Origin: Verrucomicrobiaceae bacterium
Lineage (GTDB): Bacteria; Verrucomicrobiota; Verrucomicrobiia; Verrucomicrobiales; Verrucomicrobiaceae
DNA: 64,000 nucleotides
Direction of reading: 5' to 3'
Assembly (NCBI GenBank): GCA_027486585.1
Contig: JAIXOU010000078.1
Location: 1-64,000 of the forward strand
Below the pieces are notes generated by a model, which worked only from the letters and a program-made list of their open reading frames with translations, made no database searches and was not told the origin of the DNA. Numbering within the stretch: the stretch's first letter is position 1; every line of letters begins with the position of its first letter. The translations under genes were made by a program, and so were the position numbers. This document shows, in pieces, positions 58,093-63,193 of this stretch.

Positions 58093-58371
58093 ATGAGCAT
58101 GATCACGACACTTAGCGCTGACCTTACCACCCCTATCCCAGAGACTCTGGCTCGCTTGCTCGACCTGCGTCCAGGAGTTCAGCTAGACTGGCAGGCAGAT
58201 GAAAACGAAACCGTCATTCATGTGAAAGTGGCCGAGCCCAGCCGTGAGGAGCTTGTCATGCGTTTGCATGAACTAGGCCGTAAACACAAAAAGGCAGGAC
58301 AAGATGCCGTCGGCGACTTGATCCGCGAACGTGAGCTAGACGATGAGCTCAGAAGCCGTGTTCTAGAATGA
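58093..58371 (+). CDS. VapB-type antitoxin (AbrB/MazE-like)
   Basis: 92 residues from ATG at 58093 (a second ATG at 58099). The N-terminal half TLSADLTTPIPETLARLLDL followed by LDWQADENETVIHVK is an AbrB/SpoVT swapped-hairpin-like DNA-binding fold; the C-terminal half is charged, helical and suited to toxin binding. It overlaps the PIN toxin gene by four bases (ATGA). Likely antitoxin and autoregulator. Confidence 0.75.
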   Translation: MSMITTLSADLTTPIPETLARLLDLRPGVQLDWQADENETVIHVKVAEPSREELVMRLHELGRKHKKAGQDAVGDLIRERELDDELRSRVLE

Positions 58372-58787
58372 GTGCCTCTGTTACCCATGTTTTGGATACT
58401 TCAGCACTGCTGGCCTATTATCTCAAAGAGAATGGCTGGGACTTAGTGCATCAGCTTATCTTTGATGAGACATGCCAATTGCGTGTCAGCTCTGGGACTT
58501 GGCTTGAGTTTCATGTTCGCCTATCTAATTTAACTTCTGACACGGCTCAGCGCGCCGAAGCTATGGAGCTTTACCGTGCTCTATTAGGCGAAGGCATCCC
58601 AGTCGATGATGCAATTGCAGCCCATGCTTATCATCTCCGACAGACTGCGGCTTCTCGGTTGCCAAACATGGACGCCTTAATTGCAGCTACAGCCGCAGTA
58701 AACGGAGCCATCTTGGTACATCGTGATCCTCACATGGCAGGCATTCCGATCTCAACCTTGCCGCAAATGGTCCTGCCAAACAAATAG
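58368..58787 (+). CDS. VapC-type PIN-domain toxin
   Basis: 139 residues. PIN acidic residues: LDTSALLAYYLKE (first Asp), WLEF (Glu), NMDALIAATAAV (Asp) and VHRDPHM (Asp), all present, so an Mg2+-dependent RNase that probably cuts initiator or other tRNA is expected. It starts within the antitoxin's stop codon. Complete length for VapC. Confidence 0.9.
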   Translation: MSASVTHVLDTSALLAYYLKENGWDLVHQLIFDETCQLRVSSGTWLEFHVRLSNLTSDTAQRAEAMELYRALLGEGIPVDDAIAAHAYHLRQTAASRLPNMDALIAATAAVNGAILVHRDPHMAGIPISTLPQMVLPNK

Positions 58788-58887
58788 GGTCTTCAAATCG
58801 CATAATTCTGTTCTCGACGGACTGAAATGAATATCCGTTGAAAATGATACCACATCGAAATCAAAGTGTTTCAGACGGTGTGGTGAG

Positions 58888-61401
58888 TCACTCCAATTTG
58901 ACGACACCGGCATCATCACAATGCGTCGTTATCATACGTGCTCGTGAGATCCGCCGAGTTTCCTTGTCTAGCGTGACTTCCAGCAGGGCACCATGGCTCC
59001 ATTGTGCGTCTGGGCCCGGTCCGTCAAAGACGGTGTTTCCCAGTGAATAGGCTAGGCAGCTGCTGGGGTCATGGTCTAGCCGCTGCACGACATGTGGCCC
59101 AGAACCCACGATGAGGTCTGCGCCTGAGTCCAGCATTTCTGAAGCGAGACGCACCTGGCGCTCATTGGGTTCTAAGCTGTGCTCCGTGCCCCAGTGTGGC
59201 ATCACGATCACCCAGTCAGCCCGTTTGCGGGCCTGCTGGATTCTAGACATGAGTTCCGCAGGCTCTGGCAGCAGGCTGTCGTCCCATCCGATTAAAGCCA
59301 GACGGCAATCTGTGATCGAGAGGAATTCAGTGTCAGCACGCAGCACGCGAAGACCTGATTTCTGCAAAATAGAGATCGTGTTCATCAGGCCATCCTTACC
59401 GAGGTCAAGAGCGTGATTGTTCGCTAAACTCAGAGTTGTAATGCCAGCTGAGTGCAGGCAATGAGACGCCTCAATGGGAGCTACAAGCTGAAGGCGTTTA
59501 CCTTGGAATGATTCGGATTTTTCAGAGATGACGCATTCCAAATTTCCCAAGACCACATCAGCTTTGGCGAAAATGGGTTTTAAATGGATGAGCGGATTTT
59601 GACCTTGTTGGATTTTTTCCCCGATCGTGCGGCCTAGCATGAGATCGCCAGTGAAGACCAGTTTGAGAGGCTTCTTCGGCCTCTTGACCTGCATCAGTTG
59701 TGCTTTTGGTCTGCCTTTTTGAAGTGCTGCATAGGTCAATAGCTCTGGCCGTTTTTCGAGGTGGTGCACGCAGATGTCCTCTGCATTCAGTTTGCCAAGA
59801 GGCGGCCGATCTTCCCAAATGGCGGCCAGGTGGGTGTCGAGATGTAGCAGCGTCGCGCCGTCTGCTTGGATGTCGGACGTAGGTTGAAGATAGGGCAGCA
59901 CATCCTTTGGGCTGCCCCAGGGCATATAAAAGCCTTCCGCACGCAGGCCTTGAGAGATGAAGTTGGCACAATCAGCTCCCCAGCCTGTTTCTGGGCCAGT
60001 GCGCCAGCTTCGTCTGAGGATTCTGGAATCAAAGAGGTAGGGAAGTCCAAACTGCTCACTCCAGGCTGCACGGGCACCCTGAGTGCCTTTGGCTTTGACA
60101 CAAACAGTCACGCTTGGAGTTCTCCAAGTTTGACCATCTCTTGTGATCTCTGCTAGGACTTCGACCGTTCCGCATTTTAAAACAGGATCGAGGAAGGGCA
60201 CCAAGGCGGTTTGTGGCAGCGTCTTCATGGCAGGTCCGTCCGTCAGCGGCTTCAAAATATGCCGTAGCCACCGCGGTGTCTTACTGGCAAAGCCAAAGTC
60301 CGCGTGGCTCAGCCGATAAGTATCTGTTTCTGCACATTTCGTTAGCCAGCGGACATGGGCGCCGACGGGATCTGGTTTGATCTGCAAGATAGCATTACCG
60401 TCTAATTCTAGTCCATAGCTGCCATCTGGGCGCTGAGGGATGTCAATCAGCTGGAGGTGAGGGAGAAACGGATCTCCAGCCCAGCTTTCAAGTAGATCGC
60501 GTGCTTTCTGTGGATCATGCGTGACATTGTCCGCATCCCAGTGCTGTAAAAGTAGGCTTCGCAAAAAAGGCCCCGCTTGATCGAGTTCCAGTGCTGGTAG
60601 AGTCTCCCCTTTTCTCACGAGTAGCTGGGCCATCAGAGACCGATCTGGACCTGTTTTTGCAAAGGGTTCAAAACTCACCCTAGCCTGTGGCACTCGCCAA
60701 ACGGTATCCAAGAATAAACCTGTGAGCATTTCCGCCTGAGCAGCACTTTTCAAATAGGGAGATGAAATAGCAGCCGTCACATCGACAAGACCACGAAGTC
60801 TGAGTAGCGTGCCCATCACACGATCAACGGCTGGAGCCAGTTCGGCATCAGCCATGGCAGCAAAGAAATCCAGATCAACGCTGGCCACGATGCGCCGCTC
60901 CTGCGGCCATGTGGTCGCTTCTTTTTCCAAAGATTCCATATCGAGCACTCGATAACGCTGAGCCAAAGAGCCAGCCTCTCGCGGTAGAGCTTCCTGGTGT
61001 CCGTCTAGATACTGCCGTGCTTCTTGTTCCAGTTCATGGGCTTCACCCGCCTGTAATTTAAGTTTCGGCACCCAGATGACTTCAGCTATAGGAGCAGGCA
61101 TCAGTGGCTCCAGCCAGTTATAGCACTGAATGACTCCCTTTGCCCTCCAGCGGGCTAACATCTCAGATCTGATTTTTAATGTCGGGCCTTTGCGCACAGC
61201 CGTTCTGATCTCATCCGAGTTGGCGATGCTGCTCGCATCATTATGCGCATCCAGCAGGATCAGGGTGTGCGCCTCCTTCAGCGGTAGAGTCTCGATCAAA
61301 TGATAAAAAGCCCCTGCATGCGATTCCTCCAGATGCACTGGCAGTTGCGCTGCAGAGTCCAGGCACAAAATCAGTATAGCGACGATGACGGCTGGCCTCA
61401 T
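58888..61401 (-). CDS. Three-domain secreted protein: UPF0489-like + amidase-like + CapA
   Basis: 837 residues with a signal peptide (about 1-18). N-terminal UPF0489-like (arginase-fold) domain with metal-ligand patterns D51-x-H53-x-D55 and D176-x-D178. After a beta-rich spacer, an amidase/NlpC-like domain with catalytic Cys478 (GWGADCANF) and His524 (LHLDTHLAAIW). From about 580 a CapA metallophosphatase-like domain: VFTGDLMLGR, VLGNLECVIS, SLANNHALDLG, MPHWGTEH and VGSGPHVVQ. CapA domains act in poly-gamma-glutamate and related envelope chemistry; UPF0489 includes peptide arginases. It overlaps its upstream gene by four bases (ATGA). Confidence 0.82.
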   Translation of the reverse strand: MRPAVIVAILILCLDSAAQLPVHLEESHAGAFYHLIETLPLKEAHTLILLDAHNDASSIANSDEIRTAVRKGPTLKIRSEMLARWRAKGVIQCYNWLEPLMPAPIAEVIWVPKLKLQAGEAHELEQEARQYLDGHQEALPREAGSLAQRYRVLDMESLEKEATTWPQERRIVASVDLDFFAAMADAELAPAVDRVMGTLLRLRGLVDVTAAISSPYLKSAAQAEMLTGLFLDTVWRVPQARVSFEPFAKTGPDRSLMAQLLVRKGETLPALELDQAGPFLRSLLLQHWDADNVTHDPQKARDLLESWAGDPFLPHLQLIDIPQRPDGSYGLELDGNAILQIKPDPVGAHVRWLTKCAETDTYRLSHADFGFASKTPRWLRHILKPLTDGPAMKTLPQTALVPFLDPVLKCGTVEVLAEITRDGQTWRTPSVTVCVKAKGTQGARAAWSEQFGLPYLFDSRILRRSWRTGPETGWGADCANFISQGLRAEGFYMPWGSPKDVLPYLQPTSDIQADGATLLHLDTHLAAIWEDRPPLGKLNAEDICVHHLEKRPELLTYAALQKGRPKAQLMQVKRPKKPLKLVFTGDLMLGRTIGEKIQQGQNPLIHLKPIFAKADVVLGNLECVISEKSESFQGKRLQLVAPIEASHCLHSAGITTLSLANNHALDLGKDGLMNTISILQKSGLRVLRADTEFLSITDCRLALIGWDDSLLPEPAELMSRIQQARKRADWVIVMPHWGTEHSLEPNERQVRLASEMLDSGADLIVGSGPHVVQRLDHDPSSCLAYSLGNTVFDGPGPDAQWSHGALLEVTLDKETRRISRARMITTHCDDAGVVKLE

Positions 61402-62738
61402 CTTATGGGGCCGATCACCGGGGCTTTACTCAGGGGCTGAATTAGCATGACCTGACTGATGGAAGTGTCGCTGAATTGCAGGCCAGGATAAACTTTTGCG
61501 ATGGTGAGTTTGACGGATTTTACCAGTTCGCCGCCAGTCGATAGATCAAAGAAAAACATTTCCCGCTGCAAATATTCATCGGGTATTTTGACTCTGTTTG
61601 CTTTGCCGCCATTCACACTCACGTCCAGCTCAGCTGGGCGGCTATTGGCATAGTAAAGTTCGGCGGATTTGGCGTAACCATTCACGATCCCGATCTTTTT
61701 TACTGGAGAGGCCTTCTTGAGCGTCAGAGTGATCGACTCGCCCACACCATCTCCACTAACGCCCTCTGCCCAGGCTGTTTCACGGCCTTGGCTGACATTG
61801 GGTGGTTGGTAGTTGAGTGTTTCGGTGTCCACTAAACTTGAAGAAGCTGTGGCCACATAATCATCCCGCTGAAACTCCCACTTGCCTCCGCTCTTCTCGC
61901 CCGTTTTCGGGTTTCTCTTTGCATTGAATCCAACATACTGGCCGATCCATTGAGTTTCTTCTCCCGTCGTATCAACGGCTGGAGAAAAGCTATATCCAGG
62001 TCTGGTGATGATAACGAGGTCGTCCTCCAGAGTTGGCTCGAAGTCCGTGAAACTCCAAGTGTAGGTGCTGCCTTCTAGTGTGAATCTCTTGGGATGGCTA
62101 AGGCTGATCTGACCTGCTGGCACGGATACATTTCGAATCTTCACGATCCCTTGACCAATGGGGCCATGCCAAGCACCAGCAGCTGAGAAAAGGTAGGTGA
62201 GAGAAAGTGGCTCAGCGTCACCATTGTCAGAGATCGAAAAATCCGAATAGTAATACGGGTTCCGATATTTAACTGAAATCTGCCGGGTTTGGCCTTCGGC
62301 AAACTCGATCTTCACGCGGTGCCACGAGTTCACAATCACGCCATGGGTCATGCTCCGTCTGCTCAGGTCCAGCTTATCATCAGTCTGCACGACCTTGATG
62401 GCTTTCCCGTCCACGGTGAGACTGAAGTTTTCCAGCTTCGGTTGCTTTGCAGTTGTTTCGCCTGAGGGGAGCGAAGATGTGATAGTCGTTGTCGCAATCG
62501 CGCTCGGAAAACCCGCCTCAATCTTGACCTTCTTGCCCGGATTGTGCAGGACATAGTCGATACGAATGTCCGCGTATTCGATGTGTAGATCGATCTCCAG
62601 ACGTTCTGAAAGCATCTCCACTTGATCAATGCCGATTGGCTGAAAAGCCCCCGTATGGCTGACTCCGGTGATGTAGCCGCCGCCATTGGCTAAAGCCAAA
62701 CTGGGTAGAAAGAGAAGGCAGAGAACAGTTTTCATCAT
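61398..62738 (-). CDS. Secreted protein with NADase-type glycan-binding-like C-terminus
   Basis: 446 residues, signal peptide about 1-17. The first 270 residues form a beta-rich domain (DUF4424-like appearance: IHIEYADIRIDYVLHNPG-type strands, KYRNPYYYSDF). The C-terminal part, with AWAEGVSGDGVGESITLTL and KIGIVNGYAKS, resembles the discoidin-like NADase-type glycan-binding domain. No catalytic motif. Its stop overlaps the start of the CapA fusion gene, and its start overlaps the stop of a small ORF, so it is translated as part of an operon. Confidence 0.7.
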   Translation of the reverse strand: MMKTVLCLLFLPSLALANGGGYITGVSHTGAFQPIGIDQVEMLSERLEIDLHIEYADIRIDYVLHNPGKKVKIEAGFPSAIATTTITSSLPSGETTAKQPKLENFSLTVDGKAIKVVQTDDKLDLSRRSMTHGVIVNSWHRVKIEFAEGQTRQISVKYRNPYYYSDFSISDNGDAEPLSLTYLFSAAGAWHGPIGQGIVKIRNVSVPAGQISLSHPKRFTLEGSTYTWSFTDFEPTLEDDLVIITRPGYSFSPAVDTTGEETQWIGQYVGFNAKRNPKTGEKSGGKWEFQRDDYVATASSSLVDTETLNYQPPNVSQGRETAWAEGVSGDGVGESITLTLKKASPVKKIGIVNGYAKSAELYYANSRPAELDVSVNGGKANRVKIPDEYLQREMFFFDLSTGGELVKSVKLTIAKVYPGLQFSDTSISQVMLIQPLSKAPVIGPIR

Positions 62739-62863
62739 CGCTCATGATAGCGCTGTGAAAAGATCAGCAAGTCTTCGATGATGTCTTCGTAAACATTCGC
62801 AGCTCGGTTTTTGGGAGCCATGCAATCACAACAAGACTCCGGTTCGCTCTTGATCGCGCTCAA
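62735..62863 (-). CDS. Possible small protein coupled to the 62738 gene
   Basis: 42 residues if TTG at 62863 is used, or 28 from ATG at 62821. It contains a CCDC cluster and ends DIIEDLLIFSQRYHER. Its TGA overlaps the ATG of the next gene (ATGA), the same coupling seen at the following junction, which argues for translation. No homologue known to me; short length keeps this tentative. Confidence 0.35.
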   Translation of the reverse strand: MSAIKSEPESCCDCMAPKNRAANVYEDIIEDLLIFSQRYHER

Positions 62864-62878
62864 ATACAGCGGGCGATT

Positions 62879-63193
62879 TCACCCCTTCGTCACTTGAATC
62901 ACCCGACCATTCGCGATGGTGAAATTGAGGCGAGATTCTGAATAGTCCATGGTCATGGGAAAGGATTCGCCGTCACGACTAACGACTCGATGGGGAACAT
63001 TTTGTCTGTCGGCCTGAAGCCCAGCTTCGGCTTCTGTCAGGCCGATGAATGGCGATGCTGGTGGTTTGGGAGGTGACTTGTGGCGCACGAGCGGATTGGT
63101 ATCCAAGGGCGTTGTGGCGATAGGATACGAAGTCGAACAGATGCAGGAAGGCAGTCCTGTGGCCGCCAATAAGATAAGAAGGATTTTTGTCAT
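62879..63193 (-). CDS. Lipoprotein resembling I78-family peptidase inhibitors
   Basis: 104 residues. A hydrophobic N-terminus and GLPSC form a probable lipobox (Cys about 17). The C-terminal half, GLTEAEAGLQADRQNVPHRV with MTMDYSESRLNFTIANGRVI, follows the I78 inhibitor pattern (R-V-x..x-T-x-D-Y-x-x-x-R-L-N-x..G-x-I-x-x-V). The usual pair of cysteines of I78 is missing. It may protect the envelope against serine proteases. Located between recN and the CapA-type operon on the same strand. Confidence 0.7.
   Translation of the reverse strand: MTKILLILLAATGLPSCICSTSYPIATTPLDTNPLVRHKSPPKPPASPFIGLTEAEAGLQADRQNVPHRVVSRDGESFPMTMDYSESRLNFTIANGRVIQVTKG

What the first reader, a model, noticed from the sequence alone, without database searches (positions are those of the whole stretch)
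58888..63193. Envelope operon with a UPF0489-amidase-CapA triple fusion
One secreted protein joins an arginase-fold UPF0489-like domain (family with peptide arginases making ornithine), a Cys/His amidase-like domain and a CapA metallophosphatase-like domain. It is translationally coupled (ATGA overlaps) to a glycan-binding-type secreted protein and a tiny Cys-rich ORF, with an I78-like inhibitor lipoprotein just upstream. A pathway that modifies arginine residues and amide bonds of an envelope peptide or polyglutamate-like polymer, shielded by a protease inhibitor, would be new.
Basis: partly seen in the sequence, partly recalled or inferred. Interest (0 to 1): 0.62.

Follow-up and report, generated by a model that had tools for sequence, protein, structure and literature searches.

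The report
Secreted arginase-fold, NlpC/P60, CapA protein
A bacterium carries a conserved two-gene cassette that makes a secreted protein with three apparently intact active sites, one resembling enzymes that turn arginine into ornithine inside peptides, together with a likely sugar-binding partner; what it acts on outside the cell is unknown.

Summary
The 837-aa protein (58888-61401, minus; secreted by its N terminus) has three enzyme domains. The N-domain is related by sequence and predicted fold to RiPP peptide arginases (only PDB hit of its profile is OspR 8BRP; VIA-align Z 18.2); all six metal ligands are invariant in 44 of 44 sequences. The middle domain is best read as NlpC/P60-like. 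The C-domain is CapA/MslH-like. Of 47 genomes found with the N-domain, 41 have all three domains in one frame and 42 have the DUF4424/NADase-discoidin gene directly upstream. Three of four Spirochaetota carriers have partner + arginase + NlpC/P60 without CapA, so CapA looks like an add-on. The tiny Cys ORF and the I78-like lipoprotein do not travel with the module: a congeneric genome (G024) has the I78 gene between a recN-like gene and ilvD with the module absent, so the "shielding inhibitor" idea fails. Poly-gamma-glutamate synthesis is unlikely (CapC in 0 of 20 carriers tested). Best reading: an extracytoplasmic peptide-editing or peptide-degrading enzyme with a glycan-binding partner. Substrate and all three activities are inferred; co-transcription was not tested.

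The parts
58888..61401 (-). Gene for the secreted 837-aa three-domain protein (signal-peptide-like N terminus, about residues 1-18)
   Evidence: ORF; domains; model pLDDT 92.8, pTM 0.91; full-length homologues. Signal peptide read by eye.
60472..61347 (-). Residues 19-310: arginase-fold, peptide-arginase/UPF0489-like domain; predicted metal ligands H28, D51, H53, D55, D176, D178
   Evidence: 8BRP only PDB hit of the 8-row profile, E=0.0072; VIA Z 18.2, 216 residues, rmsd 4.0, 13% identity, model range 19-298; six ligands invariant in 44 of 44; NF052474 peptide arginase in 3 of 44 members, best E=1.4e-4.
60091..60471 (-). Residues 311-437: connecting, mostly beta region, no family assigned
   Evidence: Secondary structure; no Pfam hit there.
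59707..60090 (-). Residues 438-565: NlpC/P60-like (papain-fold) cysteine amidase domain; C478, H524, D531, D542, H546 conserved
   Evidence: hhalign against seven NlpC/P60 proteins prob 86.5, E=4.6e-6, versus 0.05 and 0.14 for two control comparisons; NLPC_P60 in 5 and Amidase_6 in 4 of the 30 domain sequences scanned (30 of 43 held); C478 43 of 43, H524 42 of 43.
58966..59676 (-). Residues 576-812: CapA (PGA_cap) calcineurin-fold domain, MslH-like; D586, N620, E622, N662, H663, D666, H736, E740, H770
   Evidence: PF09587 E=3.3e-50; VIA Z 28.4 to MslH 8ith, 251 residues, rmsd 2.8; listed residues invariant in 39 of 39 rows with a letter there, D586 in 40 of 41.
61398..62738 (-). Partner gene: secreted 446-aa protein, DUF4424-like N part and NADase-type discoidin (glycan-binding) C part (about residues 295-432); overlaps the three-domain gene by four bases
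   Evidence: PF25302 E=2.9e-28, PF14415 E=2.8e-7; NF047619 E=3.6e-34; directly upstream in 42 of 47 carriers.
62735..62863 (-). 42-aa ORF (TTG start, 3 Cys), overlapping the partner gene; probably not a gene of the module
   Evidence: No family; no convincing relative in 56 genomes; no recurring small ORF upstream of the partner in other loci.
62879..63193 (-). I78-like lipoprotein: resident flanking gene, not part of the module
   Evidence: PF11720 E=0.18; 93% identical copy in G024 between a recN-like gene and ilvD without the module.
58869..62876 (.). Segment present in the window and absent from G024 (58869-62876, or equally 58874-62881, as TTTCA stands at both ends): it holds the three-domain gene, the partner and the 42-aa ORF
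   Evidence: L128 against the window; TTTCA positions read.

Best explanation
The two genes form a discrete, patchily inherited cassette for an extracytoplasmic peptide-processing enzyme. SHOWN by sequence and predicted structure: an arginase-fold domain with a complete binuclear metal site of the peptide-arginase type, an NlpC/P60-like Cys-His domain, and a CapA/MslH-like calcineurin-fold domain in one chain with a signal-peptide-like start, next to a partner with a discoidin-type binding domain. INFERRED: the partner anchors the enzyme on a glycan (cell wall, capsule or prey/host glycan). The first domain hydrolyses a guanidinium or amidine group on a peptide side chain (most simply peptidyl-arginine to ornithine plus urea). 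The NlpC/P60 domain cuts an amide or isopeptide bond in the same substrate. The CapA domain, seen in the window's phylum but in none of the four Spirochaetota proteins, acts on the peptide chain (epimerisation or hydrolysis; its closest solved relative MslH epimerises a peptide C terminus). The core common to two phyla is partner + arginase domain + NlpC/P60.
For: Six metal ligands invariant in 44 of 44 sequences; C478 in 43 of 43, H524 in 42 of 43; CapA site residues in 39 of 39. Peptide arginase 8BRP is the only PDB sequence hit of the N-domain profile and matches at the motif positions of PMC10028609 (motifs from passages); fold match Z 18.2. UPF0489 in 22 of 44 members, NCBIfam 'peptide arginase FlmR/OhkR' in 3 of 44. 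NlpC/P60 evidence. MslH Z 28.4, NF038314 matched by 39 of 44. Partner directly upstream in 42 of 47 carriers, including 3 of 4 Spirochaetota. Three Spirochaetota proteins lack CapA but keep partner, arginase and NlpC/P60 domains. Beyond the pair no neighbour family of a crude ORF set occurs in more than 8 of 47 loci, and the two at 8 look like sulfatases and ABC-F ATPases by eye. Presence/absence at the G024 site.
Against: No activity, substrate or expression is shown. The residue matching OspR Glu11, proposed to hold the guanidinium (PMC10028609, passages), is Ser/Asn in 41 of 44, so the substrate may not be arginine. With the 44-row full-length profile 8BRP is only E=0.69, and Foldseek listed no arginase in its best 50 rows for the better model. 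The middle domain was not fold-tested on its own (one search says parts outside 574-837 are barely tested by its list). No precursor peptide or polymer synthetase is linked to the cassette. The only promoter-like site found is on the plus strand. One of four Spirochaetota carriers has the arginase domain alone, without partner.
Confidence: 0.5

Rival explanations
1. The arginase-fold domain is a hydrolase of another kind (other amidine, formimino or amide substrate, or an N-deacetylase-like activity) in a cell-wall or surface-polymer remodelling enzyme; arginine is not involved. (Overlaps in part with the best explanation.)
For: OspR Glu11 position is Ser/Asn in 41 of 44, while family-specific residues S62, Q92, W96, E98, D253, S255 are invariant in 44 of 44, which would fit a changed substrate pocket. 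The superfamily holds several substrate types (PMC10028609, passages).
Against: The only PDB sequence hit of the domain profile is a peptide arginase, and the NCBIfam model hits are peptide arginase in 3 and rocF arginase in 2 of 44.
Confidence: 0.3
2. The cassette serves synthesis, trimming or release of a poly-gamma-glutamate-like or arginine-containing polymer (capsule, cyanophycin-like).
For: CapA domain with complete site; signal-peptide-like start; glycan-binding-type partner.
Against: CapC (PF14102) in 0 of 20 carriers tested (20 of 47), control positive in B. subtilis. Cyanophycin synthetase above cut-off in only 2 of the same 20 and not in the window genome; lesser matches ring in all 20 and in all 14 controls. 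No synthetase seen recurring beside the cassette.
Confidence: 0.1
3. It is an antagonistic or predatory factor: a secreted cell-wall or peptide hydrolase used against other cells or to scavenge host or prey peptides for nitrogen.
For: Secreted multi-hydrolase by prediction; discoid domain named after NAD glycohydrolases; patchy distribution, 42 of 386 genomes of the order, and presence/absence at one site.
Against: No immunity-like partner recurs beside it; no PADLOC hit at E<=0.01; active sites and architecture are conserved, not polymorphic.
Confidence: 0.2

Closest known systems
Peptide arginases of RiPP clusters (OspR, FlmR, OhkR; pfam12640/UPF0489)
   Same: Fold (Z 18.2 to 8BRP), three metal motifs and six ligands, best sequence match in the PDB.
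   Different: Here with a signal-peptide-like start, fused to two further enzyme domains, no precursor peptide seen beside it, Glu11 replaced by Ser/Asn, below Pfam's curated cut-off.
NlpC/P60 endopeptidases (RipA/RipB type)
   Same: PYVFG...G.DC.NF...A.R..G motif with C478 and H524; hhalign prob 86.5; RipB model matched by 3 and RipA by 2 of 44.
   Different: Matches are weak (best Pfam E=6.2e-5; whether any passes the cut-off was not shown); DCSG of the compared NlpC/P60 proteins is mostly DCAN here; lies between two other domains.
MslH lasso-peptide epimerase / CapA (PGA_cap)
   Same: Z 28.4 over 251 residues; D586, E622, N662, H663, D666, H736, H770 match Asp11, Glu44, Asn87, His88, Asp91, His259, His295 of MslH (PMC10406935, passages; matched by eye).
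   Different: NF038314 score 61.7 against a cut-off of 700; the place of MslH His261 is Gly738 here (by eye), so it is a general CapA domain, not an MslH orthologue.
DUF4424 / lpg2210 family (beta-sandwich with similarity to M1-aminopeptidase domains)
   Same: N part of the partner matches PF14415 in 18 of 20 partner proteins scanned.
   Different: No YARHG hit at E<=0.01; a NADase-type discoidin domain follows instead. Paper PMC3848476: abstract and outline only.

Membership tests
Peptide arginase (pfam12640) | Six Mn ligands in motifs EEH(N/H)EAF, DXHXD, LDIDLDYFSC | tested here: met
   H28, D51, H53, D55, D176, D178 in 44 of 44; profile alignment to 8BRP shows all three motifs, the third as a separate stretch of only 3.9 bits. 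The wording of motif 1 differs (ESHAGAF).
Peptide arginase (pfam12640) | Arginase alpha-beta-alpha fold | tested here: met
   Model pLDDT 92.8, 8brp_C Z 18.2, rmsd 4.0, 216 residues. Foldseek's own best 50 rows held no arginase for this model.
Peptide arginase (pfam12640) | Score above Pfam curated cut-off (27 bits) | tested here: not met
   Best E of 44 members 0.0015, which is 19.3 bits (L051); window protein no hit at E<=1. So filed as a relative, not a member.
Peptide arginase (pfam12640) | Glu next to the first His ligand (OspR Glu11) | tested here: not met
   Position 27 is S or N in 41 of 44, never Glu.
Peptide arginase (pfam12640) | Converts peptidyl-Arg to Orn with urea release | not testable with these tools
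   Needs assay.
NlpC/P60 | Cys in a G-x-D-C motif and following His | tested here: met
   C478 43 of 43, H524 42 of 43.
NlpC/P60 | Profile match and papain-like fold | tested here: inconclusive
   hhalign prob 86.5 over 39 columns with two clean controls; NLPC_P60 in 5 of 30 domain sequences; PDB search with the domain profile best E=0.14, 3pbi 'invasion protein' (NlpC/P60 type by recall), among unrelated hits; fold not searched for this domain alone.
CapA / PGA_cap | PF09587 above cut-off with metal-site residues | tested here: met
   171.4 bits against 27; site residues 39 of 39.
CapA of poly-gamma-glutamate synthesis | Genome has CapC/PgsC | tested here: not met
   0 of 20 carriers tested, the window genome among them.
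MslH epimerase (NF038314) | Score above equivalog cut-off | tested here: not met
   61.7 of 700 bits.
I78 inhibitor (flanking gene) | PF11720 above cut-off | tested here: not met
   12.4 of 23.6 bits.

The most novel reading that the evidence does not exclude
A secreted peptide arginase: an extracytoplasmic enzyme that turns arginine to ornithine within a wall-bound or extracellular peptide while cutting and epimerising or trimming the same chain through two fused active sites, docked on glycan by a dedicated partner. That would be a post-translational Arg-to-Orn system outside RiPP biosynthesis, shared by two phyla.
Probability: 0.3. Interest if true: 0.75.

Novelty: new variant of a known kind. 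Interest (0 to 1): 0.56.

Why it matters
The peptide arginases in the two papers whose passages I saw (PMC10028609, PMC12703449) are RiPP maturases. A conserved, apparently exported relative with two more domains of peptide-acting families and a fixed partner would extend that chemistry to the cell surface, and gives three active sites to test. The two-phylum core (partner + arginase domain + NlpC/P60) tells which parts to test first. In the listings of my literature searches (15, 15, 3, 6, 10 and 10 papers shown of 4,914, 58, 3, 6, 6,621 and 14) I saw no paper on this fusion by title or abstract start; the library holds only open-licence PMC papers.

Tried and rejected
I78 inhibitor as part of the operon: rejected. 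In G024 (87% complete) a 93% identical gene lies between a recN-like gene and ilvD with no module; 9 of 56 genomes match the I78-like protein, and of the 11 full-length carriers only the window genome does.

42-aa Cys ORF as a peptide substrate: rejected for lack of conservation; a partial look-alike to the DD(I/V)LF precursor motif was noticed by eye and set aside as chance.

Poly-gamma-glutamate and cyanophycin synthesis: not supported. Defence system: no PADLOC hit for four proteins. UPF0489 by Pfam in relatives' genomes: 0 of 56, but the control rang nowhere, so it says nothing about absence. Foldseek against the PDB listed no arginase among the best 50 rows for the better model, although conventional arginases appeared at E about 5e-3 for the poorer model; the OspR match comes from the VIA-align second look. 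The full-length 44-row profile gives 8BRP only E=0.69. NCBIfam also listed aCcr1_fam in 4 of 44 (best E=0.019), taken as chance. The PDB search with the NlpC/P60-like domain profile gave nothing under E=0.14. The pattern scan of genome contigs gave two loci from 39 stretches. Promoter scan: one site, on the plus strand, against a mean of 3.2 in shuffles. Whether G024 lost the module or the window lineage gained it could not be settled: both fit TTTCA at the two ends.
Full report
WHAT IS THERE. All ORFs named in the finding exist at the stated places. The main protein (58888-61401, minus, 837 aa) begins with a signal-peptide-like segment (by eye) and has three enzyme domains, the first two joined by a mostly beta region. 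The gene overlaps the upstream partner gene (61398-62738) by four bases.

DOMAIN 1. Pfam does not see UPF0489 in the window protein at E<=1. Among 44 aligned homologues (window included), 22 match PF12640 weakly (best E=0.0015); apart from PGA_cap (39) and Metallophos (3) no other Pfam family is matched by more than one member. The best of these matches is 19.3 bits, under the cut-off of 27. NCBIfam 'peptide arginase, FlmR/OhkR family' is matched by 3 of 44 (best E=1.4e-4) and rocF arginase by 2. A profile of eight N-domains against all PDB sequences gives one hit at E<=10, the peptide arginase 8BRP (whole-sequence E=0.0072), aligned at the three motifs, the third with a low score; with the 44-row full-length profile 8BRP is at E=0.69. 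With the 44-sequence alignment the model reached pLDDT 92.8 and pTM 0.91 (the first, 11-sequence model had pLDDT 74.4), and residues 19-298 align to 8brp_C with Z 18.2, rmsd 4.0, 216 residues, 13% identity. PMC10028609 (passages) names six Mn ligands in OspR: His12, Asp39, His41, Asp43, Asp165, Asp167. Their counterparts H28, D51, H53, D55, D176, D178 are invariant in 44 of 44. Against: Glu11 of OspR, proposed there to stabilise the guanidine, is Ser or Asn in 41 of 44 and never Glu. S62, Q92, W96, E98, D253 and S255 are invariant and may shape another pocket.

DOMAIN 2. Amidase_6 is weak (E=0.0087). In 30 extracted domains (of 43 held) NLPC_P60 matches 5 (best 6.2e-5) and Amidase_6 4 (best 0.001); the RipB model is matched by 3 of 44 full proteins. 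Profile comparison with seven NlpC/P60 proteins of carrier genomes (six, one picked by eye from L102) gives probability 86.5 and E=4.6e-6 over 39 columns, against 0.05 and 0.14 for two unrelated pairs. C478 is conserved in 43 of 43 and H524 in 42 of 43. A PDB sequence search with this domain gave nothing under E=0.14, the first row being 3pbi, an NlpC/P60-type protein by recall. So the domain is best called NlpC/P60-like. Its fold was not searched separately.

DOMAIN 3. CapA is certain (PF09587 171.4 bits). The best structure is the lasso-peptide epimerase MslH, Z 28.4 over 251 residues. Most catalytic positions named in PMC10406935 (passages) have counterparts by eye, but it scores 61.7 bits against an equivalog cut-off of 700, so it is a CapA relative and not an MslH.

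PARTNER. The 446-aa protein, secreted by its N terminus (by eye), has a DUF4424-like N part and a NADase-type discoidin domain. Of 20 partner proteins from the 15 loci first collected, 18 match DUF4424 and 19 NADase_transloc. DUF4424 has a beta-sandwich similar to a domain of M1 aminopeptidases (PMC3848476, abstract).

DISTRIBUTION AND CO-CONSERVATION. The N-domain was found in 42 of 386 genomes of the order, 8 of 387 of the phylum and 4 of 296 of the phylum of the Spirochaetales locus L028; these are samples, not full counts, and the first two overlap. I examined the neighbourhoods of all 47 distinct genomes so found (42 + G305 + 4; window included). Architecture: 41 of 47 arginase + NlpC/P60 + CapA in one frame; 4 arginase + NlpC/P60 (three Spirochaetota, and G305 where CapA is a separate frame downstream); 1 arginase + CapA (G453, shortened); 1 arginase domain alone (L028). 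The partner lies directly upstream on the same strand in 42 of 47 (split into frames in L033, L100 and L103); misses are L028, L037, L038 (contig edge), L099, L102. A start codon at the exact 4-base overlap exists in 17 of those 42. In a crude ORF set no third neighbour family occurs in more than 8 of 47 loci. So the unit is two genes, and the core shared by two phyla lacks CapA. Three of the 47 (L038, L103, L106) were left out of the 44-row alignment A5.

THE FLANKS. G024, a genome of the same genus, 87% complete, carries a recN-like gene (named by eye), the I78-like gene (93% identical) and ilvD (Pfam in the window) in the same order at about 88-91% nucleotide identity, without the module. 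Its 66-base spacer keeps a 30-base stretch (26 of 30 identical) matching window 58838-58867, just downstream of the three-domain gene (score 40 against at most 22 in 200 shuffles), then joins at TTTCA to the I78 side. The missing segment (58869-62876, or 58874-62881) holds the three-domain gene, the partner and the 42-aa ORF. A TA-like pair with a PIN-domain toxin (58102-58787) lies in a separate difference. Whether G024 lost the module or the window lineage gained it is open. Either way the I78-like gene is a neighbour by residence; of the 11 full-length carriers only the window genome matches it. The 42-aa ORF has no credible relative.

MECHANISM. Three conserved active sites in one apparently exported chain, from families that act on peptides or peptide-like polymers, suggest processing of one peptide-type substrate at a glycan surface. 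Synthesis of poly-gamma-glutamate is disfavoured (CapC in 0 of 20 carriers tested of 47); cyanophycin synthetase is above cut-off in only 2 of the same 20. I commit to an extracytoplasmic peptide-editing or degrading enzyme at 0.5, with arginine-to-ornithine as the single most likely first-domain reaction but only about 0.3 likely in full. The rivals overlap in part, so the odds do not add up to one.

NAMES. Spirochaetota rests on the record title of L028 and the tool's phylum of its genome.

Noticed in passing
58102-58787: MazE-like/PIN-domain gene pair (PIN E=1.2e-11; MazE weak, E=0.065) on the plus strand beside the cassette, absent from the G024 site.
   Followed up: partly
L028:7830-11765: Spirochaetales MAG: arginase domain alone in a lipoprotein-like protein, followed by a large lipoprotein-like protein (919 aa; DUF3160 recalled, not tested) and a possible Memo-like protein (recalled, not tested).
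   Followed up: partly
L103:6903-8090: Shortened fusion: first half of the arginase domain joined directly to CapA in one frame, without the NlpC/P60 domain; decay or assembly error.
   Followed up: no
L032, L036, L049, L050, L051, L090, L091, L095, L097, L107, L108: The partner gene is present in two copies in tandem upstream of the enzyme gene.
   Followed up: no
G001:C92 and G030:C4: Cyanophycin-synthetase-like genes in pairs; the second copy (723-aa open frame) is listed with one internal TGA in both genomes.
   Followed up: no
L050:7054-9723: In G305 the arginase-NlpC/P60 part and the CapA part are in two separate frames, 72 bases apart.
   Followed up: no
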